DNA of 64,000 bases, taken from contig CM049316.1 of the NCBI GenBank assembly GCA_026874595.1, positions 64,959,176-65,023,175 on the forward strand. Reading direction: 5' to 3'. The position numbers and the translations under genes were made by a program. The stretch comes from Sipunculus nudus. Its lineage: Eukaryota > Annelida > Sipuncula > Golfingiida > Sipunculidae. A model generated the notes under the pieces. That model ran no database searches and was not told where the DNA came from. It saw nothing but the letters and a program-made list of their open reading frames with translations. This document shows, in pieces, positions 195-63,680 of this stretch; the stretch's first letter is position 1; each line of letters opens with the position of its first letter.

Positions 195-1530
195 CAATAG
201 TCTGGAACCATGTACGTGGTCATCTAAATTGAGTGGTCATGACAGCCAGATGGTTGTCTTAGTGGGGTGGTCATGATAGCTGGATGGTCATCTTAGTGGG
301 GTGGTCGTGATAGCTGGATGGTCGTCTTAGTGTGGTGGTCGTGATAGCTGGATGGTCGTCTTAGTGTGGTGGTCGTGATAGCTGGGTGGTCATCTTAATT
401 GGTTGGTCATGATAGCTGGATGGTCATTTTAATTGGGTGGTCATGATAGCTGGATGGTCATCTTAGTGGGGGGGTCATGATGGCTGGATGGTTGTCTCAG
501 TGGTTTGGTTGTGATAGCTGGATGGTCATCTTAAGTGGTTGGTCATGATAGCTGGATGGTCATTTTAGTTGGGTGGTCATGATAGCTGGATGGTCATCTT
601 AGTGGGGTGGTCGTGATAGCTGGATGGTCGTCTTAGTGTGGTGGTCGTGATAGCTGGATGGTCATCTTAATTGGTTGGTCATGATAGCTGGATGGTCATT
701 TTAGTTGGGTGGTCATGATAGCTGGATGGTCATCCTAGTGGGGTGGTCATGATGGCTGGATGGTTGTCTCAGTGGGTTGGTTGTGATAGCTGGATGGTCA
801 TCTTAATTGGTTGGTCATGATAGCTGGATGGTCATTTTAGTTGGGTGTTCATGATAGCTGGATGGTCATCTTAGTGGGGTGGTAATGATAGCTGGATGGT
901 TGTCTTAGTGAGGTCATCATAGCTGGATGGTCGTCTTAGTGGGGTGTTCATGATAGCTGGATAGTCATCTTAGTGGGGTGGTCATGATAGCTGGATGGTT
1001 GTCTTAGTGGGGTGGTCATGATAGCTGGATGGTTGTCTTAGTGGGGTGGTCATGATAGCTGGATGGTCGTCTTAGTGGGGTGGTCATGTTAGCTGGATAG
1101 TCATCTTAGTGGGGTGGTCATGATAGCTGGATGGTTGTCTTAGTGGGGTGGTCATGATAGCTGGATAGTCATCTTAGTGGGGTGGTCATGATAGCTGGAT
1201 GGTTGTCTTAGTGGGGTAGTCGTAATAGCTGGATGGTTGTCTTAATGGGGTGGTCGTGATAGCTGGATGGTCATCTTAATTGGTTGTTCATGATTAAGCT
1301 GGATGGTTGTCTTAGTGGGGTGGTCATGAAAGCAGGATGGTTGTCTTAGTGAGGTGCATGGTCGAGATGGCCTGATGTTGTCTTAGTGGGGTGGTCATGA
1401 TAGTCGGATGGTCTTCATTAAGTGGGGTGGCCATGATAGAAGCATGGTAGTCTTTTTGGGGTGCTCATGATAGCCTGATGGTTGTCTAAGCTGGGTGGTT
1501 GTGATGGCCGGATGGTTGTCTTAGTGGGGT
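195..1530. repeat. 34-bp minisatellite, about 39 copies
   Basis: Consensus unit close to GGTCATGATAGCTGGATGG followed by TCATCTTAGTGGGGT. Variants TTAATTGGT / TTTTAGTTGGG recur every 136 bp (about 400, 536, 672 and 807), so four units form a higher-order repeat. 34 is not a multiple of 3 and no long frame is open, so it is not coding. It may lie in a later WD40-gene intron or beyond that gene. Confidence 0.93.
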
Positions 1531-1540
1531 GGTCAGTGTA

Positions 1541-14100: not shown

Positions 14101-17100
14101 CTCAAACTGTTTTGGAGGAGATTAATTTTAATCCTTTATAATCTGTTACACCAACCTATGTCCACCTGGTTTTTTTAGATAATTTTGTAAAAGTTTATAT
14201 TTTTCAGTAACTTTATAGAAAGCTGCATATGGAAGCAATGACCTGATGTGGAAATTAAGAATTTTACAATAAATCTCCAGTTTATGTTTCACTTCTTTTT
14301 TGACTCTTCAAATTAATCTGACAGATCAGATGTGTCTCTGCATGAGTAGCCATCTGTGTTTTTGCTTGTTATATTTTTTAGAGTGTTTACATGACATCAT
14401 CCAATCAGCAGTTGTCCACTAAGGTCATTTTTTCATATGACAAATGGCCTTGACCGTCACAGCTCTTGTCAGGAGACATTTTACAAAGTTTAGTTGTGTT
14501 ACTGATCTGTTTTTATTTCTCAGTTTAGTAAAATAATTGCATCTTTTCTGGTGCCAAACTAGAATTTAATGGGGCTTCAAGCAGCTAGATTTACTCTATC
14601 CACAGCCTGCCAACCCAAAACGTTGATTTTTAATGAACTGAAGCCTGGCAGCCTGCCACCCTAAAACGTCGATTTTTAAATGAAATGAAGATGACGGGTC
14701 GCAGCTACTATCATTTTATTTCAGGCCTGAGTGTCATGTTGTCATGGCTAAATTTACTGGAAAACATTCACAAGCCACAAATCCTTACAAATTATAGACA
14801 GCTCTAGGAAATACAGTATTGAAGGGGGGATAAGCACAAAATTTGCAAAATAAAAGACTTCAATGTAAATAATATTTTTTAATGAAACAAGGGACAGAGC
14901 TATTTTATATACAGATATTAATAAAGAAGGAGTTTATCATTCATTCTATTAAACAATCTTACTTTTAGGGTCAGGGCAGCTCCATTCTTCTTTGACAGTA
15001 CAAGGGTTTGTAGATGTGTCACATTTCAGGATGGTGCCATCTCCAAACACAGCAAACAGAGTACCTGCAAGAAAGCGTGAACAATCAGCACCACATACTG
15101 CAACAGATACCTGTAAGGATTCCATAACAATCAGCATTTAGGCAGCCAACACATATCTAACTAGTAGCCCATGGGCCATGACGCTCAGCTGCATTCAGGG
15201 AAAAGTGAACATTGGGCAACATGACTCTCAGAGTGGTCCGATAGCTATTTTGTTTTAGTTTCTGAACATTTTCACCAGTATTTGAATTTGCATAATACGT
15301 CATTGTGAAAATTGTACATTTTGTCCTGGATCATAATTATACTTTCTGAGAACAAAGGAAACCAGATGTTTCTAAAATGCAACTGTCATATATAATTTGT
15401 AATACTTTGATATATACACATGTGTATATATACCGGTAGCCATTTTGTTTTAGTTTCTGAACATTTCCACCAGTATTTTGAATTTGCATAATACATCATT
15501 TTATAAATTGTATATTTTGTCCTGGATCATAATTATATTTTTGAGAACAAAAGAAACCAGATGTTTCTTATAAGTAACCATCTACCATAATTAGTTAATG
15601 CTTTGATATATTTTCAAGTGTATATGACTTGTTTATATGCCCTAGAACATGCATTTTGCTGCAGTATTTTGATTAAGCATAACACAATATTGTATATATT
15701 TTATATTTTGTCCTGGAATTTTATTAATAAAAAATGTTTTAACTTTATGAGTCTGTATTAACTTAATAACCTGATTAAATAAATTTTGTTACAAAAAGTA
15801 CTCATTAAAGTACTCATGAGTACATTTAGAGTACTCGGTACTCGTACTCGAGTACTTTTTAAAAATTGCAAAAGTACTCGTACTTGTACTCGAGTACTTT
15901 TAAAGTACTCAGTACTTGTACTCAACTACTTTAAAAGTACTCGGACCCAACTCTGGAGTGATGGGCTCAAAAATAGAGAAATAAAATGCATAAAAAATAA
16001 AAAAAAGACAAGTGGCGCCATCAGTCTGCAGGAACTGATGAAACACTCTATGATCAATAAACATGCAAATATCATTATATTATAAAATATCATAATATTA
16101 ATTCTTCAGATACTTGAGTTTTTGTAACAAATTTTTAATTATTCTTGGGGTACATCTGAGCCCCATAGCTTGGAGGATATGGGTAACTGAGACCTAATTT
16201 CAGGTTTTGAAGGAAATTTTTGATTGACCTCTCTGGAAATAAAAGTTTCTTGGTCTAATGGTTGTGATTTGTGCCCTGTTAACGGCCGGCCAGCCCGAAA
16301 AAAAAAACGGACAAAGAGTGATCCCTATAGCTCAGATGACTTTCAGTCTTTGAACCAAAACATAAATACAATGCATATGAGGAATTATACAATTTAGGTT
16401 AAAGGTTTTTTTCTTCCTTGTCCATATAGCAAGGTAAAAAAACCTCTGGTGTAAAAATATATTTTCAAACCATGAATAAAATTTAATGTTTACCCTGCTG
16501 TTGCGCATATGCTTCAGGAAAAACTGAGCATATACCTGAAACTAGCCCTTCAACATGTTTACTTGTGTGGAAACATGCAAATAAGATTCCATTAACTAAT
16601 ACCTAATCAATGATGTTTTCATTCTTAAACACTATAATGCCACTGCGAAACCCTTCCTTTCTGCAAAAGCAGTCAAACCTGTCTGATAGGCCACCTATCT
16701 AATAAAACCACCATTGAGTGAACTGGACACATTCAAAGTGTTTAACTGACCTCTCTTATAAGACTACCTGTGAATTAAGACCACTTTTGTCCAGTCCCAC
16801 AGGGGTCTTACTACACAGGTTTCATTGTGGTTAATTTTTTTCCCTTACATCCATCTGACCATGATAATGAGGCCATTAGGGATCCTTCATACCAATGTTT
16901 AATTCTGACCACCAAGAAAAAACTGATAAGTAAACATCCAATAAAAAAAGTCACCTTCTGCTATGGCATATGCAGCATCCAGTAGGTTTCTCTTTGGATG
17001 TTGTAGTAATGTTGTGATGACATCACCTGACACTGGACTCACGATCCGGACTGACGAATCACGACAGAGCAAGACAGAACGTACAGGGTAGCTTGGATGA

Positions 17101-20100: not shown

Positions 20101-23100
20101 CCCCTGTCACTAGGTATTTCAGTGGGTTAAAGAAGGTCATGGCTGAGATAGTTCTTGTGTGAAGGTTTTTCTCGTAGGACAACAGTTTTCCTTCAAAAAG
20201 GTTGAACATCTGTACAAAAATAAACACAATCCTTCTCATAACATTTATACAACAGTAATAATGATTCCTTCAGCAAATATATGACCATTTTAGTTCTGAA
20301 TCAAAGCTGTCACTATTAATATGTATATTAAATCAAATAATATTTAATAACACTCAATTGTCTAGCACTCAGTCTAGCTACAAATTAGGAATAAGGTTAA
20401 GTAAACCTATTCCACGTGCGTTTGTTGTGTGATGGGAGGATTTCACCCAGATCCCAGACTTTGCCCTGATTTGATTGGCTGGTACACATGTGACATCATG
20501 GACTGAATTTTATCAACAACTCAGATCTAGAAATGCATGTTGTTTTTATTCTCTGCTGAAAATTTGGGACTGACAGAGGCGGAAATACTGTGCTTTTACT
20601 GAGATCTAGAATTTTTAGTCACAGGTGATTTCCCAGTGTGTGACGTCACTGCCGATTAGACAGTGCTCATAGATGTGCCCATAGTTTTTAAACAAATCAC
20701 ACAACCTCATGTTTTTAGTGGAAAAATAGATAGAAAAAATGTTTTTCCTCCAGGAATTAGGCACATTTTATGTAAAATCTATATTAATATTTTTTCATAG
20801 GCAATTATGTTATATGATAATACAAGTGACCCTTGGGTCATGATGCTCAGCTGACTTGGAAGATGTTCGCAAAAGGAAATTTTATCATCTGAATGGTAGT
20901 ATATACCCATTCAACTGAAGCATCAAACAGATTAACCAACAGGCCAAGATTATGTCTGTATTTATATATCTCAAAAATAGAGAAAAAATGTGTAAACTTT
21001 AAAAAAATACAGGTGGTTCCACCAGTCTGCAGAAACTAATATAAAAAAACATGGTCAATATCCATGCAAAGAATCATGGTGATCTCTGCATAAGTTGTTT
21101 AGATACTTCAGCTTTTGTATCAAATTGTCCATTATTCTGAGGGATACTTCAGAGTCCTATAGCTTGAAGGATATGGGAAACAGAGACCTAATTTCAGGTT
21201 TCCACAGACACTTTTCATGGACCTCCTTGCATTACAAAAATGAAGAATCTAGGTCCAGCTGTTACGATTTATACCCTGTTGACAGATAACAACATGTTTA
21301 AAGGTCTAAAAAATACAGAAAAAAAATTCGTAAAAATCTAAAAAAAATACAGGTGGCGCACCCAGTCTGCAGAAGCTGATGGAACACCTCATGATCAATA
21401 TGTATGCCAAAATCATGAACATCAGTGTTGTAGTTATTGAGATACTGCAGTTTTTGTATCAAATTTTTCATTATTCTAGGGGGTATTTTGGAGCTATACA
21501 GCTTAAAGGATATGGGTAACAGAGACCTAATTTCAGGTTTCCATGGAGACTTTTCCCTGTGTGTCAAGAATGAAGATCCTTGGGGGTATTTTGGAGCTAT
21601 ACAGCTTAAAGGATATGGGTAACAGAGACCTAATTTCAGGTTTCCATGGAGACTTTTCCCTGTGTGTCAAGAATGAAGATTCTTGGTCCAGTTGTTATAA
21701 TTTGTGCCCTGTTAACAGATGTTCATATCTTTAAAGGTCTCACAAATTGAGAAAAAAATTCGTAAAAACACCCGAACAAATACAGATGGTGCCACCAGTC
21801 TTAAAGAAACTGATGAAACACTCAATGATCAATATCCATGCAAACAATTATGGTGCTCTGCATTAGTTGTTCAGATACTTCAGCTTTTGTATAAAATTTT
21901 CGATTAATCTGAGCTGTACTTTGGAGTGCCATTGCTCAAAGGATATGGGTAACAGAGACCTAATTTCAGGTTTCCATGGAGACTTTTCATGGGTCTCCCT
22001 GTGTGTCAAGAATGAAGATTCTAGGTCCAGTCGTTACGATTTGTACCCTGTTGACAGATAACTACATCCTTAAAGGTCTCAAAAATAGAGAAAAAAATTT
22101 GTAAAAAATCGAAAAATACAGGTGGCACCACAAGTCTGCAGAAACTGATGAAACATCTCATGATCAATATGTGAGCCAAAAATAATGACCATCAGAGATG
22201 TAGTTTATGAAATATTGAAGTTTTTGTATGAAATTTTTGACTATTCTTGGGGGTACTTTGGGTCCCCATAGCTTAAAGGATATGGGTAACAGAGACTTAA
22301 TTTCTGGTTTCCATGGAGACTTTTCATAGATCTCTTAGTGTGTCAAGAATGAAGATTCTAGGTCCAGTCTTTACGATTTGTGCCCTGTTAACAGATGTTC
22401 AAATTTTTTAAGGTCTCAAAAATAGAGAAAAAAATTCCTAAAAAATAAAAAAATACAGGTGGCACCACCAGTCTGCAGGAACTGATGAAACATCTCATGA
22501 TCAATATGTATGCAAAAAATCATGACCATCAGCGATGTAGTTAATGAGATATTGAAGTTTTTGTATGAAATTTTATACTATTCTGGGGGGTACTTTGGGG
22601 CCCCATAGCTCGAAGGGTATGGGTAACAGAGACCTAATTTCTGGTTTCCATGGAGATTTTTCATGGACCTCTCAGAATCTAAAGTTACACGTTTCTAGGT
22701 CCAGCGATTAAGATTTGTGCCAGGTTAACGGATGGACGGACAGACAGACGGACGGACGGACGGACAAACAGACAGACGACGGACAAAGGGTGATCGCTAT
22801 AGCTCAGATGACTTACAGTCAGCTGAGCTAATAATGAGATTTGGAATATGTTTGCTTGACCTGAAGTGGTTCATTCAGTGCGCACCTGGAGACAAGATGG
22901 CAAAGTAAACAATATCGAACCACACGTTTTTCAAGTCATGGTATGACCAGTAAAATAAGGTGCTGTTTTCTTTATTTTAGCAGGTTAGACCCAGAAGCAG
23001 CTTGGTGGAGGGAAGCCCAATTGTGGCAGGTGAATTTAAACTGTCATGATATATGTGGCCTTTGATTAAACAGAACTTCAATTGCAAAGCTAATTTGGAT

Positions 23101-26100
23101 CAGAGAACAGTATTTCAATGTACGCCGACAGTTATTCTCAATGTTCGAGAGTACTCGGTGGCGGTTGGGGAGGGGGTGGGTGGGGGTTGAGCATGGGAGC
23201 AATTTCCCTGTTTCCGATCCACTTGTTTGGTATCATACATGGAATCTGTTGACATGTATCACAAATATTTATGTTTTCTATGTAAAATATGTTTCCAGCA
23301 CATAAAATATACATTATATATAAAAATTTAATAAAAAAAACTATACATAATGTTAACTTAATATCCCAATTTTGAATATTTTCTTTATATACATGCATAT
23401 ATTTTTATTTTAATTTTGAGGATAACAACACAACTGCCATATTGTTTGTTTAACATTTATTTAGAATATGTATAGTGATGTCTTTTCAGGTTTTAAATTC
23501 CAGTAATAACACACTGAGTGAAGGTCCATTACAACGGAGTCAGAATCCTTTGACTGTCAGACACTAGTCAGCATAATATTGGACAAGGCATCAGGTCATT
23601 ATACATATGAGAGACTGTGGCCTCTTCTGTTCCCAGCTATCAGGTAACTGTGACATAACATGTCTAGACCATTTCAGCCAACTTAAACTAGAATATAAGT
23701 TTGTTTAGGCTAGATAGGGCCAGATAACACAAATACTTGAAAATCATGCACTTTTTAGCAAATTTTTAATATTTGGAGCACCAAAGGTATATCTCCCACA
23801 CAGTTTGGTTATAAATGACATCTCAGGTATATCAGGTATCAGTAAGGAACACATAAGAATGTCAAGGATGATAATTCTTGGAGTAACAGAACACTGGTAT
23901 AGTCATTTTCACAGTGGCCACTGTTAGGTGAATCACAAATGATAATGAGTTAGTTACAGGGCTGTAATTTATTTAAATTTAGAGACAGAGTGTTAAAATT
24001 TCAGATTCTAATAGTCATTTAGTGTCATAACAGAATGTTTTTATAATAAATGGGGCAAAAAATGTTGGGTGTGAGTGAAGGTTGAGTAAACCTGTTCCAC
24101 GTGCGTTTGTTGTGTGATGGGAGGATTTCACCCAGATCCCAGACTTTGCCCTGATTTGATTGGCTGGTACACATGTGACATCATGGACTGAATTTTATCA
24201 ACAACTCAGATCTAGTAATGCATGTTGTTTTTATTCTCTGCTGAAAATTTGGGACTGACAGAGGTGGAAATACTGTGCTTTTACTGAGATCTAGAATTTT
24301 TAGTCACAGGGGATTTCCCAGTGTGTGAGTCACTGCCGATTTGACAGTGCTCATAGATGTGCCCATAGTTTTTGAACAAATCACACAACCTCATGTTTTT
24401 AGTGGAAAAATAGATAGAAAAAAAGTTTTTCCTCCAGGAATTAGGCTCATTTTATGTAAAATCTATATTAATATTTTTTCATAGGCAATTATGTTATATG
24501 ATAATATAATGAGATTTGGAATACGTTTGCTTGACCATAAAGGCCAACTGGATTACCTTAAAAGTCCATTCGTCCATTTAATTTGAATAGTCATGTTTCC
24601 TTTAGAAAAGAAGTGTCATCAATTTTTTTTCTTCTAATAAACCTGAATTATGTGGCACTGATGAAGACTGCATTAAGAACAACCTTCTTTAAAAATGATG
24701 ATGAAGAAGCCTCCTCTGATTGAAGAGAAAAGGTAATCTTTAAGTGAAAAGGGTTTTGTCTACCTGAATAAAATATTTGTGTTCTGTTATTTAACAGTAT
24801 GCTTGTAAGGTTTGGAGTTCACTCTGACAATTAAGTATATATATATGTGTATATGTATATATATAAGGCCCCTTTTCCATGATCGCAATCCCATGTATGA
24901 AAAAAATTGTGCATCATGCTATTAATTTTCCATGCACGTGTCCAATCATTGAAATGACTGACTGAATGTAAAATTAGTGCTCGAGCCAGTCGCAGGGCTC
25001 TAGAAAATCCAGCCCGCACTGGCTCCCTAAGCAATGACAAAGATTGACAGACTGAGTCTGTTTTACAGTTTTTAAAGTAGAAGATACTGAAAGAGATGAA
25101 GAGGGTAGTGAGGGAGATGGAGGAAGCCGGAGAACCCAGAGAGAAGCATTAACCTTGGATGGGCCACTACAACCCATTCTCATGGCAGCACCTGGGAAAG
25201 AACCTTGGTCGCCAGCAGATAAGGCCTGGCAATTTACCAGTCAGCTGTCCAGGCCCCTTAATCATGGAAATGGTATACATAATTTGCACAGGAGCAATTT
25301 TTCTGGAAATGCATGTGGAAACCAGATCATGGAAAACAGGCCTTAAAACTGAAGTAACATTGTAGATTCTAAATTCCATAGGTCATAACTCAGATACCAT
25401 AAAAACTCACATATAAGTCGACCCCCTGTATTAGACTAGGGACATTTTTAACTTTGAAACATCAAGTGAAAAAATGTTTGACCATCTGAGTCAGGGGGTA
25501 CCAGGACACATACTCAGGGGAGTCATAATTTACATTTATACTTTCAGTACTGACCAACAAACCATGACCCACCAATGGTGACAATTTATGATTTATAATA
25601 CCTGTGATTCCAGGTTAACCAAGAATTACAGTGACTTACAGCAACCCCAGTGTTACAAGCAGCAAAGCATTTCTGTGTGCGACTAGCTGTCTCTTCTAAC
25701 ACTAGCAGAGTGAAGATATCCTGATTGGTCACACCATCGTGGCTTGTCTTTCTAGGTAACAGATGTCGTCCTCCATACCTGAACACCCAGCTCTGAAAAG
25801 GCAAGAGTGAATGAGAAATACATATCATTATGTATGCATAATAGTACACATCTTAGTGAATATGGGGCAAAAAGGTTTATGGGCATAAAGCTAAAGAATA
25901 TGATGTCAACAAGATAAATTGGGACAGAGTTTTAAATTATTATCCATTATTGTCTTTTTGTATTGTCTTCTTGACCTTTTATTGCAATGCCATAGATAGT
26001 ACATGAAATTATATAAGGCAGACTATATGAATTAAAGGTCATATTTATAACAAATAACAGTGCACACATTTTTAATTAATAAAATTATTTTTTTTTAATC

Positions 26101-35420: not shown

Positions 35421-38400
35421 GTATCCGCCAAAACAGAGTTTTGCGGATACTATGTTTTCAGTCGGCAGCCGCTGCATAGGTTTCCGGAGAACTCCTCTGT
35501 AACCACTGGGCGGAAAATTTTTTTAAATTTGGGATTATGATCAGGTCACATGTGAACTGCTGCCCCTCATTTTTGGTTGACCTCTGATCTTTCCTCTCCG
35601 CCCAGTGTCCATTTGTGCGTCTGTTTCCACACATAAACCCACATATCTCGGGAATCCTTTGACCGATCAGGCTAAAAATTTTGCACAAATGTAGCCCTTG
35701 GATAGCTTTATAACATCAGGCCTCGATTTTATGCATTCCTGCATTCCCGAGGAAAGCAATATTTACGGAGGGAATGCTGAATTTTTCATTGAATTCCCGA
35801 CCGGGAATGCCAGCCTATTATCGAAGAATTTGGTTTATTTTAAATGCCATTAATAAAATAAATCTACGCAAAGAAAGGCAATTAAAAAGAAACACTTCCA
35901 AAAATTGATGGTATACGCAGTTGCTTTAATTTTATGCGTGTCCTGATCAGTTGTGTCCGGTATAGAGACAATTTGTCAGAAAGTGATCACCTGCTAATAC
36001 CGTCATGATCGTTACAGAACTGAAGAAATCACGCCATTCACGCAATAACAAACATCTGATTTGTGGAGATCGTGCACTAGACATCGTCAGTTGCAGATTC
36101 CATTATATAGCCCTGCGTCATTTGTTTTATATACACAAGGTGCCGCCGTGATCTTAACTGAAAAAAAAATATTCATAACCACCGTAAACGACACGTCAGT
36201 GAATATTTTCCCGCCAAAATTGTCATGAATGAAGCCACATGGGGTGGATTTTTACTACGTATCTACCATTGGCTCTCACTCTATGACACGTCATGGCTCC
36301 TCCAATCAGAAGAACCTGTGCACGAGGCACTGATTAATGCAAATCAACGTGTCACATGGTTTCTATGCGGCTTTATTGCCAAAACCTGCCGGTTGACAGT
36401 ATGGATGTCGAGCATTATAATGTGACAGCATTGAGCTTGCGTTTTATTTGTAAGCAAATGAGAACGATTTCTAATTGCTCAGTGTTTTTTTTTTTTTTTG
36501 TGATTCACCTATATTTCATAAATATTTGTGCATTATAATTTGTCAGATTTCATTGACCTTGGGCTGATGCGCGCAGGCTGTTTCGCCAAAGTTACGAAAT
36601 ATGGGAGCTGTTAACGGGCAGTTTTTTTTCCCTGTAACGTACGAGAATGTATTGGTCGTTCCACAAATATATAGGCACAATCAGACTAATTTTAAATGCT
36701 CAAATTAAACTATCAGCTTCGTCTTGTTATACCTTACATTATGGAAATTAGGAACATCTTCCACATGGAGACCGAGGGAGTTTAAGAATATAATTATAGA
36801 GGGCTATTATTCTAGCACATGAAGGCAGACGGACCCGGGCTTGCACCTTCACATTATACGGCTCGAGCCAAAAAAATACGGGCAACCCTGGTACGACGAT
36901 CAACTGAAATTGCACGCTTGTTAATGAATGAAAAAATATGTATCATGATGTAATTGATGTTTACAATGAGCACTGATGAAAAATCGCCGTTCGATAAAAA
37001 CAACAGAATTTTTCCAAACGTCTTGCTGTTCATGTCAGCAGCAGTAGGGATGCGGTGCTAAAATTGCCCTAATCTCTGGTGGGGACACCTGTGGTGTTTG
37101 TAGTAAAAAGTGCCAGGGAATTTGCAAATAAGGGTTTCAAAACTGGAAATCAGGTACTTTTTTCAAGAAGATTGAACCGCATCATAAGGAAATATGAGGT
37201 GATCCACCGACAATTTATTATCTACTGCTGTTTTTCCATGCAAATATTGTGAACGGAAATAAACAATACTTGTCCGAACGTACCCACTGAATTTTCTGCA
37301 CTTGAGTTTCTCTTAACCCACATGTGTCATTTGACTTTGGCAGGAACATTCATTTGATCCCAGATACAATACATTAATGCTAATTTTTCCCATGGTACCT
37401 TTACGAAATGTGCGGGACCCGCATGCTACCATCGCATTTACGTGTATTTGTATAGTATTTGATTAGATACATCAAGTACGGAGGCCAAATGCAAATGCTA
37501 TTACAAATGTAATTTTAAAAAACACAAATGTAAATACAAATACACATTGTAGCTGTATTTAAATACAAAAATGTATTTGACCCAAACCCTGCAAGAATTA
37601 CATTTCACTGAATACCATTTGTATTATAAAGTTTTTTTTATATGGTGAACTCTGTCAAAACATGCTGCATCAGATGACCCACTATCATTTGCTTCAGTAA
37701 CTTATTAAGATATACACACCTTGTTGCTCTTTTTCTATATTTACATTTCTATATTCAAATTTACAAGAACATGTTTTAGTTTCATTTGATTAGTCATAGG
37801 GATATTGCTTATTCTTTTTTTTCAGCTGAAAACATTCAATATTTAAACAAAGTTTCTGAGGGTATGTAAAAGGTCTGGTGGGAATGCCAGAAAAATTTTT
37901 GCATTCCCGGGAGGGAATGTAACAAATTTTGATTATTACGACCTCTGAACATACACTAAAAATGGTGGCGCCACCTGCAACCATTTTTGCACAGTGTCCA
38001 TATGTTCATCTGCCTTGGAATAAAATCACTCATATCTCTGCATTGGTTGGACTTACCCACCTGACATTTTGCATGTGTGTATACATCCTGGATAGCTTTC
38101 TTGATTTCATGACAGGTGGAGCCACCTACATTCACGTTAATGCTGCAGATATCCAAGCTCATATCTCAGAATCCGTCTGACAAATTGGGCCATAATTTTG
38201 CTTGTTTATAGATCTCACATTGCTCTTCATCATACGCAAAATTGGTGGTGCCACCTGCAACCATTTTGCACAGCTTCCATCTGTTCATCTGCCTTGAGTT
38301 AAAATCACTCATATCTTGGCAGTGGTTTGGCTTATCCACCTGAAATTTTGCAGGTTTATACATCCTGGACAGCTTTCTTGATTTTATGACAGCTGGCACC

Positions 38401-39395
38401 ACCTACATTCATGTTTACGCTGCAAACATGCAAGCTCATATCTCAGAAACCGTCTGACCAATTGGGCCATACTTTTGCATGTGTATAGATCTCACAAAGT
38501 TCTTTATCATGTGCAAAACTGGTGGCGCCTCCTCTAACCATTTTTGCACAGTGTAAGTCTGTATGTCTGCCATGGGATAAAATCATTCATATCTTGGCAG
38601 TGGTTTGATATATCTGCCTAAAATTTTGCAGGTTTATACATCTTTGATAGCTTTCTGGATTTTGTGGCAGGTGGCGCCACCTACATTCACGTTTTTGCTG
38701 CAGACATCCAGGCTTATATCTCAGGATTGGTTTGCTGTATCCTCCTGAAATTTTGCATGTGTATAGAACTATGGATCTTACATAGCTCTATATCATACAC
38801 AAAACTGGAGGCACCACTTGCCACCATTTTTGCACAGCCACTGTCTGTTTGTCTGCCGTGGGCTAAAATCACTCTTATCTCAGTAGTGGTTTGACTGATC
38901 TGCCTAAAATTTTGCATGTTTATACATCTTGGACAGCTTTCTCAATTCTGTGGCAGGTGGCACCACCTACATTTATGTTTACGCTGCAGACATTCAGCCT
39001 TATATCGCAGAACTAGTTTGACATATCCCCCTGAAATTTTGCATGTGTATAGATCTCACATAGCTCTTAATCATACACAAGATTTGTGGAGCCACCTGCC
39101 ACCATTTTTGCACAGCAACCTTCTGTTTGTCTGCTGTCTGATAAAATCACTCATATCCAAGTAGTGGTTTGACTTATCTGCCTAAAATTTTGCATATGTA
39201 TACAACTAGGACAGCTTTGTGGATTTTGTGGTAGGTGGCGCAACCTACATACACATTTCAGCTGCAGACATCCATGCTAATATGCAACACACCTCACTCT
39301 ATTTCCCCTTGCCACTCAATCCATGCCTCACTTCACCCATCCCACTCTGATTTGGGCGGATACACGTAGTCGCTAGTTGACTACCCGTATTCTAG
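35421..39395 (+). mobile_element. Helitron/Helentron-like element, family B copy 1 (interrupted)
   Basis: Starts with an imperfect terminal hairpin GTATCCGCCAAAAC..GTTTTGCGGATAC and ends with a hairpin (GTAGTC...GACTAC) a few bases before CTAG, followed by T. No target duplication; each of three copies sits between T and T. A terminal CTAG preceded by a hairpin is Helitron-like and T-T insertion is Helentron-like. The core is a tandem array of about 280-bp units (palindromes near 37964, 38244, 38521, 38806 and 39088). A 2.2-kb insertion at 35717-37947 splits it. No Rep/helicase frame is seen, so it is non-autonomous. Confidence 0.75.
35717..37947. mobile_element. 2231-bp DNA insertion inside family B copy 1
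   Basis: The family B sequence TTTATAACATACAC, intact in copy 3 (58438-58454), is split here with AACAT repeated on both sides (35712-35716 and 37948-37952). Ends are CAGGCCTCG and, inverted, CAGAGGTCG, partly matching. Both ends contain hairpins built on GGGAATGC/GCATTCCC. The CAG terminus recalls hAT, but hAT normally makes 8-bp duplications, so the class is uncertain. No transposase frame recognised. Confidence 0.7.
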
Positions 39396-41101: not shown

Positions 41102-43376
41102 GTATCCGCCAAAACAGAGTTTTGCGGATACAATGTTTTCAGTCGGACACCGCCGCGGCATAGGTTTCCGGAGAACTCCTCCGTAACCACTGGGCAGATT
41201 TTTAAAAATTTGGAATTATGATCGGGTTACATGTGAACTGCTGCGCCCTCATTTTTGGTTGACCTCTGTCCTTTCCTGTCTGCCCAGCATCCATTTGTGC
41301 GTCTGTTTCCACACATAAACCCACATATCTTGGGAACCGTTTGACCGATCAGGCTAAAAATTTTACACAAATGTAGCCCTTGGATAACTTTATAACATAC
41401 TGTTACAGAGTACACACTCATACATATACAGGTCTAGGCGTACAATGATGTCCAGCAGTTAACTATTAGTTCTGGTCTCTCCGGTCTGATTGTGTAAGGG
41501 GCCACCCAGCCCAGCGTCTGCGGGATGAGGCTGATGGCTTCCCCTCGACCCCTGCTCATTATCCCATATGGATGTATATAGAGAGAAATAGAGTGTTTTC
41601 TGTTAAAGTATATTCTTCATTAGCAACCAGGCCCTTATTTATATTTCTAAGAATAATAGATTATCAGGTGGGCCCATTTGTTCTCTTTATGTGCATATAT
41701 GCCAAGATACCTTACGTTATTTAATTTGCCAGTTATTAATCATTTTTCAGTTGATAAATTAAAATCCACATGTTATAATCTAAGTTTATTTCTCATTACT
41801 AGTTAACCCTAATTCGTGATTACGTCACAATTAGTTGACTGATTAAGTGTGCGGTGAGCTATCCGGCAAGGTAATATTTATTGTTGAGCATAAAGTAGTC
41901 TTTGCATTATATCCATTTTAAGCGTTAACACGAAACACACTTTTACTCTGACTGGACCAGATAGCGATATCAGCACCAGCCTTGCAACCCCTGTTTCGTT
42001 AAGGTCCTCACCTGTAGAATGTATAAGTATACTGGGGTGGCACTGTCTCAGGGCTCAGGTCTCAAGTCCAGAGTGAGTCTCCAGTAGCCTGCTATTTCAA
42101 TATATTTTTAGTGTATGTGCATGGTGGGAACCTGTACGGCTTTGATATATTGATTAAACATCGTCTTAACGTCTGCCTTAAGTTCGAGTTTGACAAGAGA
42201 ACCTGCAAGTCGGCAACCCCTGACAATACACTAAAAATGGTGGCGCCACCTGCAACCATTCTTGAACTGCATCCATCTGTTCATCTGCCTTGGGATAAAA
42301 TCACTCATATCTCTGCATTGTTTGGACTTATCCACCTGAAATTTTGCATGTGTATACATCCTGGATAGCTTTATCGATTTTATGACAGGTTGCGCCACCT
42401 ACATTCATGTTTACGCTGCAGACATCCAAGCTCATATCTCAGGAACCGTTTGATCTATTGGGCCAAAATTTTGCATGTGTATAGATCTCACATAGCTCTT
42501 TATAATATTAAAAATGGTGGCGCCTCCTGCAACCATTTTTGCACAGCATTTGTCTGTTTGTCTGCCGTGGGATAAAACATATCTCGGCAGTAGTTTGACA
42601 TATCTGCCTAAAATTCTGCAGGTTTATACATCTTTGATAGCTTTCTGGATTTTGTGGCAGGTGGCGCCACCTACATTTATGTTTACGCTGCAGACATCCA
42701 GGCTTATATCTTAGGACTGGTTTGCTGTATCCTCCTGAAATTTTGCATGTGTAGATCTCATGTAGCTCTATATCATACACAAAACTGGAGGCACCACTTG
42801 CCACCATTTTTGCACAGCCTCAGTCTGTTTGTCTGCCATGGGCTAAAATCACTCTTATCTCAGTAGTGGTTTGACTGATCTGCCTAAAATTTTGCATGTT
42901 TATACATCTTGGATAGCTTTCTCAATTCTGTGGCAGATGGCACCACCTACATTTATGTTTACACTGCAGACATTCAGGCTTATATCTCAGGACTGGTTTG
43001 ACATATTCCCCTGAAATTTTGCATGTGTATAGATCTCACATAGCTCCTAATCATACACAAGATTTGTGGCCCCACCTGCCACCCTTTTTAGCACAGCAAC
43101 CTTCTGTTTGTCTGCTGTCGGATAAAATCACTCATATACAAGTAGTGGTTTGACTTATCTGCCTAAAATTTTGCATATGTATACAACTTGGACAGCTTTG
43201 TGGATTTTGTGGTAGGTGGTGCAACCTACATACACATTTCAGCTGCAGACATCCATGCTAATATGCAACACACCTCACTCTATTTCCCCTTGCCACTCAA
43301 TCCATGCCTCACTTCACTCGTCTTACTCTGATTTCGGCGGATACACGTAGTCGCTTGTTGACTACCTGTATTCTAG
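41102..43376 (+). mobile_element. Helitron/Helentron-like element, family B copy 2 (interrupted by a solo LTR)
   Basis: Same terminal hairpin (GTATCCGCC...) and same hairpin plus CTAG end as copy 1, between T and T. The core again has about 280-bp units with GGTGGCGCCACC-like palindromes (42239, 42385, 42519, 42659, 42786, 42936). An 825-bp LTR sits at 41401-42225. Confidence 0.75.
41401..42225. mobile_element. Solo LTR of an LTR retrotransposon
   Basis: Begins TGTTACAGAG and ends CCCCTGACA (TG...CA), with a 4-bp target duplication ATAC on each side (41397-41400 and 42226-42229). Copy 3 of the same host repeat has the uninterrupted site AACATACAC. Internal TATAAG (42022-42027) and an ATTAAA further on fit an LTR promoter and poly(A) region if it reads on the plus strand. 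No internal retroelement genes remain, as expected after LTR-LTR recombination. Confidence 0.85.
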
Positions 43377-44672: not shown

Positions 44673-45572
44673 AACCTGCAAAAGAAAGGTACTGGTACTT
44701 GACTAGTATAATTTGGCTACGTGTAACCAGGGTTTGCTGGTTTTACCCAATATCTCGGTAAAACCAAGGTGAAACCTTGGCTGGGTAAAATAGTTTGATA
44801 TCCACAATAGCTTGGGTAATAATCTAGGCAAAACCCTGGGTAACACATGGGTAAAATACTTTTAACCCAGGTTTAACCCATTTTGTTGACCCAGGTCAAA
44901 TGCAAACCCTGCTGATATCCCCCCCCCCCTCCCCCCAAAAAAAACAAAGCTTGATATATTATTATCTCAGCTGACTAAAAAGTCATCTGAGCTATAGTCG
45001 TGGTCCTTTATCCAACAGCTGTCTGTCGGTCTGTTAAACTGGCACATTTTGAAAAACGTGAACCTGCAAAAGAAAGATACAGGACTGTAGTACTAGTACA
45101 TGACTAGTATAATTTGGCTTCTCAAAACCAGGGTTTGCTGGTTTTACCCAATATCTCGGTAAAACCGAGGTAAAACCTAGGCTGGGTAAAATAAGTTATA
45201 CCCAAGTATTACCCAGAATTCCTGGGTTTTACCCCTAATTCCTATTGATCAGAATAATGTGCTGTGCACGGCCAAGTTTACATTCATGAGTGAAAGTGTC
45301 AGTGGTAAAAGGCTTCTTTTGGACAGGGGTAATATAGTCAAAGACACTTGGCTTGCTTCCAATATTCACAAATTTTAATGTGTGTGAGCAAACAGAAAGA
45401 AACTAGGCTTGGGTCCTGATTGATAATAGCAAAATAAGATGGGGAAAAGCTTGGGTAATAATCTAGGCAAAACCCTGGGTAAAACATCGGTAAAATACAT
45501 TTTACCCAGGTTCTACCCACTGGGTTGGGTAAATAGATTTTACCCATGTCAAATGCGAAGTTGCGAACCCTG
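44673..45572. repeat. Duplicated block carrying a GGGTAAAA-rich MITE
   Basis: The sequence starting AACCTGCAAAAGAAAG is present at 44673 and 45061, each time followed by a MITE with ends CAGGGTTTGC and GC(A/G)AACCCTG (44728-44911 and 45129-45572). The MITE interior is rich in GGGTAAAA/TTTTACCC. Because the flank is duplicated with the element, this is a segmental duplication rather than two insertions. The second copy also carries extra internal sequence. A fragment of a family A end (CAGCTGACTAAAAAGTCATC...) lies between them at 44967-45035. Confidence 0.7.
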
Positions 45573-55126: not shown

Positions 55127-55653
55127 TAACCCAGCTGACTGAGAGTCATCTTGAGCTATAGTAATGAGTCTTTTTCCGCTGTCTGTCTGTTTGTCTGGTC
55201 TTCAAAACAGTAAAATTGTAACTGATAGTTATAGAAACTTCTAACTTTGCATCCAGGGAGGTTCCAAGCAAGTCTCCCTAGAAGCCTGAAATTAGGTAAC
55301 AGTGACCTATTTGCTTTGAGTCACTGGCAAAAAACATGACCTTAAGGTCTCTTAAAGTCAGAAAAAGGCACAAATCTTAATTGTTGGACCAAGAAACTAC
55401 ATACAAGATATAAATGAAGATCCTTATAAAGTCTCCTTAGAAACCAGATATTCAGTTCACTGTGACCTATATTCTGCAAGCTGTGGGGGAAAAAACATGA
55501 TTTTTGCACAGTAGAAGTCAGGTAGACAAAAAACTTTTGCAACTAAAACCTTGTGTAACATTTTAAAATTTTTATACATTCACTGATATCTCAAATATTA
55601 AAGCATGGATTCCTTTTATGCAAAATTCAGCTGAGTGTCATGGCTCCACTTGT
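55127..55653 (-). mobile_element. Short diverged family A element
   Basis: Starts with the family A hairpin (CAGCTGACTGAGAGTCATCTTGAGCTATAG) and a CTGTCTGTCTG stretch, and ends CAGCTGAGTGTCATGGCTCCACTTGT. The core is too diverged to show clear 337-bp units. Confidence 0.65.
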
Positions 55654-56098
55654 TATGTTTGTAGTTTTGTATTTTCTCACTTTGCATTATTTTATACTTT
55701 CATAATTGTACTTTATAGAGATGATAGTTTTTTTTATGATTGTCATTTAATTTATATGATTGTTTAATGAAATCATACTCTTTGAATAAAATCATTGCAC
55801 ATACAAGTTGTTTCTAAAGGTTTTAATCAGCCTTGTTAAAGTCATATGAAAGTTGTATGACAGCTATACTCCTTACAGTTTTTATCAATAACTGGTTCTC
55901 AGTATTCCTCATTGATCCCTTTCAGTAAAAACATTGTCAGCTTAGCTTGAAGTGTGATATGTTGCTATGGCGCAGCATCGCCCTGCTGTTAATTCAATGA
56001 TCATTTTACTGGCTTTCAGAGCGCCATTACATCCTTCAACAGAGAATACACTTTAAAATGTTTAAAGGCTATGAGGTTGCAAATATTTTTGTCATTTT

Positions 56099-59000
56099 TA
56101 GCTCAGCTGACTGAAAGTCATCTGAGCTATAGCGATCACTCTTTGTCCGTCGTCCGTCTGTCCGTCCCTTAACCAGGCACAAATCGTAACCACTGGACCT
56201 AGAACCTTGTAACTTGGGATTCTGAGAGGTCCATAAAAAATCTCCTTGGAAACCAGAAATTAGGTCTCTGTTACCCATATCCTTTGAGCTATGTGGCCCC
56301 AAAGTACACCCCAGAAAAGTCAAAAATTTCATACAAAAACTTCAATATCTCATTAACTACTTGACTGATGGTCATGATTTTTGGCATACATATTGATCAT
56401 GAGATGTTACATCACTTCCTGCAGACTGGTGGCGCCACCTGTATTTTTCGATTTTTTACGAATTTTTTTCTCTATTTTTGAGACCTTTAAAAATGTGAAC
56501 ATCTGTTAACAAGGCACAAATCATAAAGACTGGATTTAGAATCTTAATTCTTGACACACTGAGAGGTCCATGAAAAATCTCCTTGGAAACCAGAAATTAG
56601 GTCTCTGTTACCCATATCCTTTGAGCTATCGGGCCCCAAAGTACCCCCCAGAATAGTAAAAAATTTCATACAAAAACTTCAATATCTCAATAACTACATC
56701 ACTGATGGTCTTCATTTTTGGCATACATATTGATCATGAGATGTTCGATCAGTTCCTGCAGACTGGTGGCGCCACCTGTACTGTTTGATTTTTTACGATT
56801 TTTTCCTCTATTTTTGAGACCTTTGAGGATGCTGTCATCTGTTAGCGTGGCACAAATCGTAACGACTGGACCTAGAATCTTCATTTTCGACGCACTGAGA
56901 GACCTATGAAAAGTCTCCATGGAAACTAGAAATTAGGTCTCTGTTACCCATATCCTTCGAGCTATGGGGCCCAAAATTACCCCCCAGAATAGTCAAAAAT
57001 TTCATACAAAAACTTCAATATCTCATTAACTACATCACTGATGGTCATGATTTTCAACATACATATTGATCATGAGATGTTTCATCAGTTTGTGCAGACT
57101 GGTGGCGCCACCTGTATTTTTCAATGTTCACGAATTGTTTTCTCCATTTTTGAGACCTTTAAGGATGTAGTTATCTGTCAACAGGGTACAAATCGTAACG
57201 ACTGGACCTAGAATCTTCGTTCTTGACACACAGGGAGACCCATGATAAGTCTCCATGGAAACCTGAAATTTGGTCTCTGTTACCCATATCCTTTGAGCTA
57301 TGGCACTCCAAAGTACAGCTCAGAATAATGGAAAATTTGATACAAAAGCTAAAGTATCTGAACAACTAATGCAGAGATAACCATAATTGTTTGCATGGAT
57401 ATTGATCATGGAGTGTTTCATAAGTTTCTGCAGACTGGTGGCACCACCTGTATTTGTTCGGTTTTTTTTACGAAATTTTTCTGTATTTTTGAGACCTTTA
57501 AAGATATGAACATCTGTGAACAGGGCACAAATCATTAAACTGGACCAAGAATCTTCATTCTTGACACACAGGGAGACCCATGAAAAGTCTCCATGGAAAC
57601 TTGAAATTAGGTCTCTGTTACCAGTATTCTTTAAGCTGTATGGGTCCAAAATACCCCCCCCCCCCATGAATAATGGAAAATTTGATACAAAAACTGCAGT
57701 ATTTCAATAACTACAACACTGATGGTCATGATTTTCGGCATACATATTGATCATGAGCTGTTCCATCAGTTTCTGCAGACTGGGGGTGCCACCTCTATTT
57801 TTTTTTCAAATTTTTACGAATTTTTTTCTTTTTTTTGAGACCTTTAAAGATGTGGTTATCTGTCAACAGGGTACAAATCGCAACAACTGGACCTAGAATC
57901 TTCATTCTTGTCATGCAAGGAGGCCCATGAAAGGTGCCTGTGGAAACTTGAAATTAGGTCTCTGTTACCCATATCCTTCAAGCTATAGGACTCCGAAGTA
58001 TCCCTCAGAATAATGGACAATTTGATACAAAAACTGAAGTATCTGAACAACTAATGCAGAGATCACCATGATTTTTTGCATGGATATTGATCATTAAGTG
58101 TTTTTATTAGTTTCTGCAGACTGGTGGAGCCACCTGTATTTTTGTATCCGCCAAAACGAAGTTTTGCGGATACTATGTTTCTGACCGAGTTCCTCCGCCG
58201 TGGCGGCGTTCGTTTCCAGAGAGCTCCTCGGAGACTAATGGACCGATTTTTCCAAAACTTACACCTATTATCGGGTCACATGTGAACTGGTGCCTAACCA
58301 ATTTGCATTGACTTCTGACCTTTCCTCTCTATCCAGTGTCCATTTGTGGGTCTGTTTCCACTCATAAACCCTCATATCTCGGGAACCATTTGACCGATCA
58401 GGAAATAAAATTGATACAAATGTAGCCCTTGGATTGCTTTATAACATACACAAAAAATGGTGGCGCCACCTGTAACCATGTTTGCACAGTGTCCATCTGT
58501 TCATCTGCCTTGGGTTAAAATCACTCATATCTCTGCAGTGAATTGACTAATTCACCTGAAATTCGTCATGTGTATACATCCAGGATAGCTTTCTTAAATT
58601 TTATGACAGGTGGCGCCACCTACGTTCACGTTCACGCTGATGACATCCAAGCTTATATCTCGGGAACCGTTTGACCGATCAGGAAATAAAATTTATACAA
58701 ATGTAGCCCTTTGATAGCTCTGTAACATACACAAAAAATGGTGGCGCCACCTGTAACAATGTTTGCACAGCGTCTGTCTGTTAGTCTGCCGTGGCCTAAA
58801 ATTACTCATTTCTCTGTAGTGGTTTGACATAACTGCCTAAAATTTTGCAGGTTTATACATCGTGGACAGCTTTCTTGATTTTATGACAGGTGGCGCCACC
58901 TACATTCTAGTTAACGCTGGACACATCCAAGCTCATATCTCAGGAACCATTTGACCGATTGGGCCAAAATTGTGCATGTGTTTAGATCTCACATAGGTCT

Positions 59001-59498
59001 TTATCATACACAAAACTGGAGGGGTTACCTGCAAAGATTTTTGCACAGTGTTTGTCTGTTTGTCTGCCATGGGCAAAAATCGCTCATATACATGTAGTGG
59101 TTTGACTTTTCTGCCTAAAATTTTGCAGGTGTATACAACTTGGACAGATTTCTGGATTTGTGGTAGGTGGCACAACCTACATACACATTTAGGCTACAGA
59201 CATCCATGCTAATATGCAACATACCTCACTCTATTTCCCCTTGCCACTCAATCCATGCCTCACTATCCGATTTTGGCAGATACATGTAGTCACTTGTCGG
59301 TTACCCGTATTCTAGTTTTAAAAGTTTACACATTTTTCTCTATTTTTGAGATATATAAATACAGACTAAATCTTTGCCTGTTGGTTAATCTGTTTGATGC
59401 TTCAGTTGAATGGGTATATACTACCATTCTGGTGATAAAATTTCCTTTTGCGAATCTCTTCCCAGTCAGCTGAGCGTCATGACCCATGGGTCACTTGT
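56099..59498 (-). mobile_element. Family A tandem-core element, copy A3, interrupted by family B copy 3
   Basis: Begins with hairpin AGCTCAGCTGA..TCATCTGAGCT (56100-56128), then GTCCGTCTGTCCGTCC, then six units with GGTGGCGCCACC-like palindromes (56429, 56766, 57102, 57439, 57782, 58126). It resumes at 59316 and ends with the perfect palindrome TGACCCATGGGTCA (59480-59493) and CACTTGT. The inserted element occupies 58144-59315. Confidence 0.88.
58144..59315 (+). mobile_element. Helitron/Helentron-like element, family B copy 3 (intact, 1172 bp)
   Basis: GTATCCGCCAAAACGAAGTTTTGCGGATAC hairpin at the start; near-terminal hairpin region and CTAG at 59312-59315. About 280-bp core units marked at 58457, 58739 and 59021. 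It lies in a T-run of family A: the matching A1 sequence (20990-21015, reverse) reads straight through the insertion point. It supplies the uninterrupted reference for the insertions in copies 1 and 2. Confidence 0.85.
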
Positions 59499-62708: not shown

Positions 62709-63680
62709 TATGCCCCCGCCACAAAGTGGCTGGGGCATATAGTTTTACCCATGTCCGTCCTTCCGAAATCAAACAGTTGTACGGATTTTTTTCGCAATGC
62801 CTGCAGATATTGGCCTGATTTTTGGTGTGTGGACAGATATTGACCAGTTACAGATCAAGTTGCGTTTCCTCCCGGTTGACCTACTTTTGACTGTTTTACG
62901 GCTCCTTAACTTAGAAAATTTCATGAAAAATAGAAATTTTCATGACAAATACACATGTACGGACTTTTTTTCGCAATGCTTGCAGATATTGGCCTGATTT
63001 TTGGTGTGTGGGCAGATATGGACCAGTTACAGATCAAGTTTGAGTTTTGTCTTGGTTGACCTATTTTTGACTGTTTTACGGCTCCTTAACTTAGAAAATT
63101 TCATGAAAAAAAGAAATTTTCATGACAAATACACATGTACGGACCTTATTTCGCAATGCCTGCAGATATTGGCCTGATTTTTGGTGTGTGGACAGATATT
63201 GACCAGTTACAGATCAAGTTGCGTTTCCTCCCGGTTGACCTACTTTTGACTGTTTTACGGCTCCTTAACTTAGAAAATTTCATGAAAAATAGAAATTTTC
63301 ATGACAAATACACATGTACGGACTTTTTTTCGCAATGCTTGCAGATATTGGCCTGATTTTTGGTGTGTGGGCAGATATGGACCAGTTACAGATCAAGTTT
63401 GAGTTTTGTCTTGGTTGACCTATTTTTGACTGTTTTACGGCTCCTTAACTTAGAAAATTTCATGAAAAAAAGAAATTTTCATGACAAATACACATGTACG
63501 GACCTTATTTCGCAATGCCTGCAGATATTGGCCTGATTTTTGGTGTGTATGCAGATATTGACCAGTTACAGATCAAGTTCGCGTTTCGTCCCGGTTGACC
63601 TACTTTTGATTGCTTTATGGCTCCTAAACATAGAAAATTTCATGAAAAATATAAATTTTCATGACAAATGTACTTGTACA
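62709..63680 (+). mobile_element. Tandem-core element family C, TATGCCCCCGCCAC hairpin
   Basis: Terminal hairpin TATGCCCCCGCCAC-AAA-GTGGCTGGGGCATA (62709-62739), then GTCCGTCC, then five 179/180-bp units (marked by CGCAATGC(C/T)TGCAGATATTGG at 62797, 62976, 63156, 63335, 63515). Units 1-2 and 3-4 are almost identical, giving a 359-bp dimer. The other end is not evident. Confidence 0.85.

What the first reader, a model, noticed from the sequence alone, without database searches (positions are those of the whole stretch)
20395..24536. Empty and filled sites in one intron prove the family A array moves as a unit
A 458-bp MITE occurs twice in the same WD40-gene intron. The 24.08-kb copy reads GATAAT/ATAATGAG without a break; in the 20.4-kb copy exactly 2009 bp of family A sits at that point with no target duplication. 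A tandem array of five 337-bp units was therefore inserted (or carried) as one transposable unit, with its ends defined to the base.
Basis: seen in the sequence. Interest (0 to 1): 0.75.

Follow-up and report, generated by a model that had tools for sequence, protein, structure and literature searches.

The report
Satellite-carrying Helentron transposon, precisely inserted
A small block of repeated DNA in this genome turns out to be the cargo of a rolling-circle jumping element that has been copied, array and all, into many places, and a larger relative that encodes the kind of enzyme needed for such movement lies in the same genome.

Summary
In detail: 2009 bp (20823-22831) interrupt one of two 98%-identical 458-bp repeats, without target duplication. 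The insert is a non-autonomous Helentron (HINE): subterminal inverted repeats, 5' hairpin, microsatellite, tandem array, 3' palindrome, T-rich target. Twenty of 20 other copies of the host repeat are uninterrupted, so it is an insertion. Of 35 elements examined, 28 show both ends, at nearly the same bases. In 10 six-unit copies, 60 of 60 array units match the same-position unit of another copy best: the array is copied as one ordered block. Corrections: the host 'MITE' is the terminal repeat of one LTR/TRIM-like element, whose two ends are the 'empty' and 'filled' sites; the mobile unit is the HINE, not the array alone. New: five 15-16-kb copies of a Rep-coding Helentron share the ends; the one read in full has A-mid-B modules in the same order before its gene. 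A known kind, new family. Orientation domains on one chromosome remain unexplained.

The parts
20395..20822 (+).
20823..22831 (-). HINE E1, 2009 bp; canonical (Rep-sense) orientation is the minus strand
20823..20861 (-). RF (canonical 3') end: subTIR AGTCAGCTGAGC (20845-20856), near-palindrome TGACCCAAGGGTCA, terminal CTTG
20823..21000 (-). P5 module, RF end included (94% to E3)
21009..22734 (-). family A tandem array: five ~337-bp units, corresponding to positions 1, 2, 3, 5, 6 of the six-unit array
21479..21686 (.). 103-bp direct duplication inside A unit 2 (99% identical copies)
22728..22784 (.). ACGG/GTCC microsatellite
22778..22831 (-). LF (canonical 5') end: TT + AGCTCAGCTGACT (subTIR) GTA AGTCATCTGAGCT (IR); folds into a hairpin (22800-22830), z -4.2
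22832..22861 (+). 5' terminal direct repeat, remainder
22862..24079 (+). internal domain of the host LTR/TRIM-like element
24080..24536 (+). 3' terminal direct repeat, uninterrupted ('empty site'); outer flank repeats ATAA
26783..28332 (-). HINE E2, 1550 bp: A array with the same LF end but a diverged RF side
56098..59497 (+). HINE E3, 3400 bp long form: LF-A(6 units)-mid-B-P5-RF

Best explanation
The 2009-bp insert is a HINE, a protein-less derivative of a Helentron (endonuclease-type rolling-circle Helitron). SHOWN: it was inserted in one terminal repeat of an older LTR-like element without target duplication; copies in this genome share its ends, module order and, position by position, their array units; a Rep/helicase-coding element in the same genome has the same two ends. 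INFERRED: the Helentron Rep nicks at the 5' TT|AGCTC end, displaces a single strand through the leader and its tandem array, stops at the 3' palindrome-CTTG end, and joins that strand at T residues, so the whole array is copied as one block. INFERRED: the HINEs arose by loss of the coding part of a Helentron whose 5' leader already carried A-mid-B repeats; unit number then changed by slippage or unequal exchange.
For: Anatomy: 12-bp subTIR pair (I15), LF hairpin, microsatellite, no TSD. Insertion, not loss: 20 of 20 uninterrupted paralogues. Ends: 33 of 35 LF, 30 of 35 RF, 28 of 35 both; counting only the end not used to pick the locus, LF in 18 of 20 and RF in 7 of 12 (the other 5 not reached in 3.5 kb). 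Second empty site: L019 against L003, GTGGTTT|TTGAG. Block copying: same-position units 97.1% mean, within-array 81.5% mean and 89.5% maximum, 60 of 60. Autonomous relative: at C17 an open frame of 2342 aa with PF14214 and PIF1 helicase, HUH and Walker motifs, an RF end about 1 kb after the stop, 33 of 33 bases of the typed end and 32 of 33 of E1's, LF ends upstream. Homology of five other 97-98% copies of its 3' region ends at query 1174-1178, the RF end being 1172. In 5 of 5 copies checked (C1, C5, C9, C10, C17) homology begins at the T-run of LF1. C17 modules read LF-A-LF-A-mid-B-ORF-RF, collinear with the long HINE.
Against: The Rep-coding copies are not the direct parents: against E3 reference modules A is 74-78%, mid 76%, B 64-75% identical (80-88% to the best-matching long-form A unit with gaps not counted), and about 145 bp of the P5 module has no match there. 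Only C17 was read in full; the other four were read at their ends, and their open frames at the PF14214 match are 571-1124 aa. Most of the 46 matches are partial, many covering only the gene end. The other 9 of 10 Rep loci looked at show no such ends in the stretches read, but these reached only 4.4 to 8 kb upstream and 3 kb downstream in six, none downstream in three, while in C17 the LF ends lie 9 to 9.7 kb upstream. The endonuclease domain that names Helentrons is weak: PF03372 E 8.5e-4, below its cut-off, no support from solved structures. The E1 target is A|T, not T|T. E1's own palindrome carries a mismatch and folds weakly (z -1.3). Of the less alike empty sites, three place the join differently. 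Movement today is not shown.
Confidence: 0.9

Rival explanations
1. The 24-kb copy is the derived state: it once held the element and lost it precisely.
Against: 20 of 20 other copies of the host repeat, on many contigs, are uninterrupted at this point; rolling-circle elements are not known to excise (recalled).
Confidence: 0.01
2. A pre-existing satellite array was captured inside HINE ends ('filler' capture), rather than inherited from the Helentron leader.
For: Cg_HINE elements in oyster include related ends with unrelated arrays (PMC7492417, Results read); A, mid and B modules here are 22-36% diverged from those in the Rep-coding copy.
Against: The Rep-coding Helentron carries A, mid and B in the same order and orientation between LF and the gene, which capture into a HINE alone does not explain; the reverse transfer, HINE to Helentron, remains possible.
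Confidence: 0.2
3. It is a canonical Helitron (A|T target, CTRR 3' end), read on the plus strand: ...CTAA|T.
For: On the plus strand the insert ends CTAA with a hairpin just inside and the E1 target is A|T.
Against: The Rep gene fixes the orientation: its 3' end is the CTTG end; the L019 target is a run of Ts; 29 of 30 RF ends are followed by TT; subTIR pairs are a HINE/Helentron mark (PMC4067079, passages read).
Confidence: 0.04
4. The array reached the terminal repeat by homologous recombination or gene conversion between dispersed arrays, not by transposition.
For: Arrays are abundant and alike, and unit number varies between copies.
Against: The 20 uninterrupted copies of the host repeat hold no insert to pair with at this point; in the 28 complete elements the junctions lie at the HINE ends, and the flanks printed differ from copy to copy.
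Confidence: 0.02

Closest known systems
Cg_HINE elements of Crassostrea gigas (PMC7492417; abstract, Results and first part of Discussion read)
   Same: 5' subTIR, complementary IR, GTCC-type microsatellite, central tandem repeats in fixed orientation, 3' subTIR, palindrome, T-rich/TT target, no TSD; some with two consecutive arrays, also of unrelated units; paralogous empty sites used as test
   Different: Consensus units there are 138-181 bp, here 337 and 281 bp; there the 10 autonomous Helentrons looked at could not be related to the HINEs ('remains unresolved'), here a Rep-coding relative with the same ends and modules is found
Helentron / HINE / DINE-1 (PMC4067079; passages only)
   Same: HINEs as deletion derivatives of Helentrons; subTIRs; 3' palindrome; variable Ts at termini; no target site modification; paralogous empty sites
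   Different: The passages report this for mite, mosquito and Drosophila; tandem arrays shared with the autonomous leader were not in the passages seen
Pearl, MgE and DTC84 of bivalves (as described in PMC7492417; originals not read)
   Same: short tandem arrays inside small elements of HINE-like architecture
   Different: Pearl units are ~160 bp; none was compared by sequence here
biv-TRIM (PMC6934838; passages only), for the host element
   Same: two terminal direct repeats round a short interior, solo repeats beside full elements
   Different: TRIM repeats are given as 100-250 bp in elements under 1 kb; the host here has 458-bp repeats and a 1.2-kb interior

Membership tests
HINE (non-autonomous Helentron) | subterminal inverted repeats near both ends | tested here: met
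   12-bp perfect pair 20845-20856 / 22817-22828
HINE (non-autonomous Helentron) | IR next to the 5' subTIR and microsatellite in the left flank | tested here: met
   hairpin 22800-22830; microsatellite 22728-22784
HINE (non-autonomous Helentron) | palindrome near the 3' end | tested here: met
   TGACCCATGGGTCA, its own reverse complement, in 28 of 30 RF ends printed; E1 has one mismatch and a weak fold, E2 has diverged
HINE (non-autonomous Helentron) | T-rich / TT target, no TSD | tested here: met
   32 of 33 LF ends preceded by TT, 30 of 30 RF ends followed by T; empty sites for E1 and L019 show no TSD; E1 itself is A|T
HINE (non-autonomous Helentron) | shares ends with a Rep/helicase-coding Helentron of the genome | tested here: met
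HINE (non-autonomous Helentron) | no coding capacity | tested here: inconclusive
   longest stop-to-stop frame listed inside E1 is 122 aa; frames were not searched against families
autonomous Helentron (C17 copy) | HUH Rep and PIF1-type helicase in one frame | tested here: met
   PF14214 E 3.8e-26, PF05970 E 3.9e-23; HIH at 1107 inside the PF14214 stretch, Walker A and B; frame 2342 aa
autonomous Helentron (C17 copy) | endonuclease domain fused at the C-terminus | tested here: inconclusive
   PF03372 E 8.5e-4 after the helicase, below cut-off; no PDB relative by sequence
canonical Helitron | 5' TC, 3' CTRR, A|T target (recalled) | tested here: not met
   ends TTAGCTC...CTTG in Rep orientation; T-run target in L019; E1 alone has an A|T target
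   in the window pair the outer flanks match (ATAA/ATAA) and a shared internal domain lies between direct copies
LTR/TRIM-like element | direct terminal repeats flanking an internal domain, short TSD | tested here: met
   window, L108, L109 (second repeat partial); 4-bp TSD in 9 of 20 other copies, control 27 of 380 mismatched pairings
LTR/TRIM-like element | tRNA primer-binding site and polypurine tract | not tested
   not searched

The most novel reading that the evidence does not exclude
Insertions of elements with this LF or RF end record the local direction of DNA replication: like bacterial single-strand transposons of the IS200/IS605 family, the transferred strand would enter the lagging-strand template, so neighbouring insertions point the same way over tens to hundreds of kilobases. 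In favour: 55 of 56 LF ends in the first 1.2 Mb of C1 lie on the minus strand, from several end variants (27 of 29 of the rarer variants in the 100-place list agree with the nearest common one) and with mostly unrelated flanks (of 20 loci read on C1, L067, L068 and L073 share similar flanks and L063/L073 a weak 51-bp match); 11 orientation runs against 26 expected; an RF list over 25 Mb of C1 has 34 runs against 50.7 expected, shuffles p about 6e-4, neighbours within 50 kb agreeing 17 to 3. Against: a sparser sample on C1-C5 shows none of it (3 same, 9 different within 300 kb), the ends of chromosomes do not follow one rule, both dense lists come from one chromosome, and gene strand and local duplication were not controlled.
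Probability: 0.12. Interest if true: 0.8.

Novelty: new member of a known kind. Interest (0 to 1): 0.42.

Why it matters
Short satellite-like arrays scattered through invertebrate genomes have been traced to HINEs, but in oyster the autonomous Helentrons looked at could not be tied to them (PMC7492417, Discussion part 1 read; the listings of searches, of the held library only, showed me no later paper that does). Here one genome shows the chain: a Rep-coding Helentron whose leader holds the same modules in the same order, and long and short forms without the gene. That makes the origin of such arrays (native leader or captured satellite) testable by sequence, and gives a candidate enzyme-substrate pair. 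It also gives a clean empty/filled pair: the two terminal repeats of one LTR-like element.

Tried and rejected
Canonical Helitron reading of the plus strand (CTAA end, A|T target): dropped once the Rep gene fixed orientation. MITE label: dropped when the internal domain proved to lie between direct copies elsewhere. Replication-direction rule by chromosome end: not borne out. Search for the ends at ten PF14214 loci first failed (4.4 kb upstream in all ten, 7.4-8 kb in five), and succeeded downstream of the C17 frame (1 of 7 loci read there), then further upstream of it. Orientation control with the host terminal repeat: the pattern gave only 53 places, too sparse to use. Rows dropped before counts: one of 100 rare-variant places (468 bp from another); 7 of 100 LF places collapsed as within 1.5 kb of the one before; five of fifteen long-form copies (L007, L015, L016, L017, L020) left out of the unit test because they did not give six clean units. 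Fetched: 20 of the 39 other hits listed, 12 of 39, 20 of 38. rows against a clean picture: C10 has a mutated RF and a second RF-like end about 45 bp on, the C8 copy gave no RF by the exact pattern used, and C17b ends CTTT.
Full report
What was checked. The window holds, at 20395-24536, two copies of a ~458-bp repeat; the first is interrupted. Trying split points round the junction, the best alignment of the two copies leaves out exactly 2009 bp. Two placements score alike (20822-22830, 20823-22831); the ends seen in other copies favour the second, because copies end CTTG|T on the strand where the element reads 5' to 3'. The host copies agree at 447 of 457 aligned positions, with one gap.

What the host repeat is. 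It is not a MITE. A search with 614 bp of the sequence between the two copies gave 49 matches (the window itself included), some lying directly beside hits of the 458-bp repeat, for example on C6, C13 and C14. Of the three other loci cut out, two (L108, L109) have the internal domain, 90% and 88% identical over about 1.24 kb, between two direct copies of the 458-bp repeat (in L109 the second is partial); the third (L110) shows the 5' repeat only, within the stretch held. In the window the outer flanks are GAATAA and ATAAAG, sharing ATAA; the inner flanks share TGAA, which I do not explain. Of 20 other copies of the repeat, 9 have a perfect 4-bp flank duplication and one a 5-bp one, against 27 and 1 of 380 for flanks of different copies. 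So the two copies are most simply the terminal repeats of one LTR/TRIM-like element about 2.1 kb long without the insert. A primer-binding site was not sought.

Insertion or loss. All 20 other copies examined (of 38 listed besides the two in the window) run through the junction without an insert: 12 with the identical bases GATAATATAATGAG, 7 with single changes, and one lacking three bases. The uninterrupted state is therefore ancestral.

Anatomy of the insert. Read on the minus strand: TT-AGCTCAGCTGACT-GTA-AGTCATCTGAGCT (subTIR and IR, one hairpin, z -4.2), a GTCC microsatellite, five A units (the second enlarged by a 103-bp duplication), then a 178-bp module (P5) that ends with the 3' subTIR AGTCAGCTGAGC (perfect partner of the first), a palindrome (one mismatch in E1) and CTTG. 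This is the plan of HINEs, non-autonomous Helentrons, as set out for oyster (PMC7492417, Results read) and for mite and fly (PMC4067079, passages read).

Other copies. I fetched 20 loci by the RF end and 12 by the LF end. With E1-E3 of the window this gives 35 elements: LF end in 33, RF end in 30, both in 28. TT precedes AGCTC in 32 of 33; the RF end is CTTG in 27 of 30 and is followed by T in 30 of 30. Since loci were picked by one end, the fair count is the other end: LF in 18 of 20, RF in 7 of 12, the remaining five not reaching it in the 3.5 kb fetched. The 28 complete elements fall into a long form LF-A-mid-B-P5-RF (15), one long form without mid (L005), a short form LF-A-P5-RF (11, E1 among them) and E2, whose P5 side has diverged. 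A-unit matches lie in one orientation in 150 of 150, B-unit matches in 60 of 60. Sizes run from 482 to 4389 bp.

Does the array move as a block? In 10 long-form copies with six clean A units, same-position units of different copies are 97.1% identical on average (minimum 92.8%), units within one array 81.5% (maximum 89.5%); for 60 of 60 units the best match was the same position in another copy. E1's five units correspond to positions 1, 2, 3, 5 and 6. The array is thus replicated as an ordered block; changes of unit number are separate events.

Empty sites. Besides E1, L019 against L003 (90-92% over the joined flanks) gives GTGGTTT|TTGAG with no duplication; because the site is a run of Ts, two bases cannot be assigned to element or target. 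Other paralogous sites (L006, L007, L015, L017, L021, L031) are as a rule less alike: L006, L007, L017 and L021 against L003 include the same solution among their best, while L021 against L064, L031 against L029 and L015 against the window place the join one to three bases differently.

Copy number. The 33-base LF pattern (30 fixed bases) has 21,694 exact matches in 1.43 Gb, the RF pattern 4,112; reversed-pattern controls 0. These are counts of ends, not of family A: 71 of the first 100 LF places carry an ATA loop, and most such copies that I read continue differently after the hairpin; their cores were not examined.

The autonomous relative. PF14214 (Helitron_like_N) has 143 matches in the genome among 150 scored. 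I looked at the neighbourhood of ten. At C17 an open frame of 2342 aa (35626502-35633527, minus) holds PF14214, a PIF1 helicase, PF04843 near its N-terminus (named for a herpes protein; a cysteine-protease fold, recalled), DUF6570 and a weak endonuclease match, an HUH motif and Walker A and B. Of the matches, five other copies of this 3' region, 97-98% identical, lose homology at query 1174-1178, the RF end lying at 1172; one at 89% stops at 1171; most of the rest are partial, many covering only the gene end. Upstream, the five copies with a PF14214 match (C1, C5, C9, C10, C17) all begin at TTTTT|AGCTCAGCTGACTGAAAGTC, with no alignment reaching beyond it, then microsatellite, A units, and a second LF. 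From LF1 to RF these copies span 14.9 kb (C17) and, by the coordinates, about 15.7 to 16.3 kb (the others). Only C17 was read in full; open frames at the PF14214 match are 571-1124 aa in the other four. C17 reads LF1, A, LF2, A, a gap, mid (76%), B (64-75%), the gene, RF. The long HINE is the same order without the gene. C17 has one A unit fewer than the others (LF1-LF2 distance 724 against 1056-1080 bp). The nine other Rep loci showed no such ends, but they were read only 4.4 to 8 kb upstream and, in six, 3 kb downstream, while in C17 the LF ends lie 9 to 9.7 kb upstream; so their ends remain open. The divergence of the modules means that these copies are relatives, not the immediate parents, of the HINEs.

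How it most likely works. Rolling-circle transfer of one strand from the TTAGCTC end to the CTTG end by the Helentron Rep, acting in trans on the HINE; the array is carried because it lies between the ends. Steps shown: ends, absence of TSD, block inheritance, presence of a Rep frame between the same ends. Steps inferred: the enzyme, its strand, the single-strand intermediate and deletion as the origin.

Side observation. Insertions tend to point the same way over tens to hundreds of kilobases on C1, most strikingly 55 of 56 in its first 1.2 Mb. Of 20 loci read on C1 (16 of them minus-strand ones in that stretch), only L067, L068 and L073 share similar flanks, with a weak 51-bp match between L063 and L073. 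A sparser sample on C1-C5 does not show it. PMC5371812 (passages read) reports that IS200/IS605 elements follow replication direction in bacteria; whether Helentrons do is open. The listings of searches showed me no paper on Helitron orientation and replication.

Novelty. HINEs with tandem arrays are known; the family, its sizes and its Rep-coding relative with collinear leader are additions. The species is not given, and I did not test any assignment; likeness to bivalve elements is by plan only.

Noticed in passing
G000 C1:0.1-1.15 Mb; C1:0.19-25.6 Mb: HINE ends share orientation over long domains: 55 of 56 on the minus strand in the first 1.2 Mb; RF list 17 same and 3 different within 50 kb. 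A sparse sample on C1-C5 shows no such agreement. No control for gene strand.
   Followed up: partly
L095 to L099 (C17, C5, C10, C9, C1): All five Rep-coding Helentron copies checked carry two LF ends in tandem, the second following a T-run of A-like sequence: a nested insertion or duplicated 5' end that then moved as one.
   Followed up: partly
L014, oriented, from about 3580: A long-form HINE whose LF is directly preceded by another A array in the same orientation, like the LF1-A-LF2 arrangement of the Rep-coding copies.
   Followed up: no
window 20395-24536: Besides the outer ATAA flanks, the inner flanks of the two terminal repeats share TGAA; chance, or a trace of how the LTR-like element was assembled.
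   Followed up: no
window 35427-39245 and 41108-43226: Two stretches with mid and B-like arrays on the plus strand without the family A ends close by; LF-like ends at 44966-44997 and 55132-55161. Possibly decayed or other Helentron families.
   Followed up: no
window 15160-16348: A fourth, decayed A-type element: RF-like 15168-15191, A-like 16002-16283, LF-like 16307-16348.
   Followed up: no
window 48583-48962: A third, older copy of the host terminal repeat, 73.5% identical, reverse strand.
   Followed up: no
L102 (C10): Two RF-like ends about 45 bp apart at the end of one Rep-coding copy, the first with a mutated palindrome.
   Followed up: no
window 233-1535 and 62778-63669: A 34-bp minisatellite (38 copies) and a 180/359-bp tandem array; neither was matched by the family A, B, mid, P5 and end queries.
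   Followed up: no
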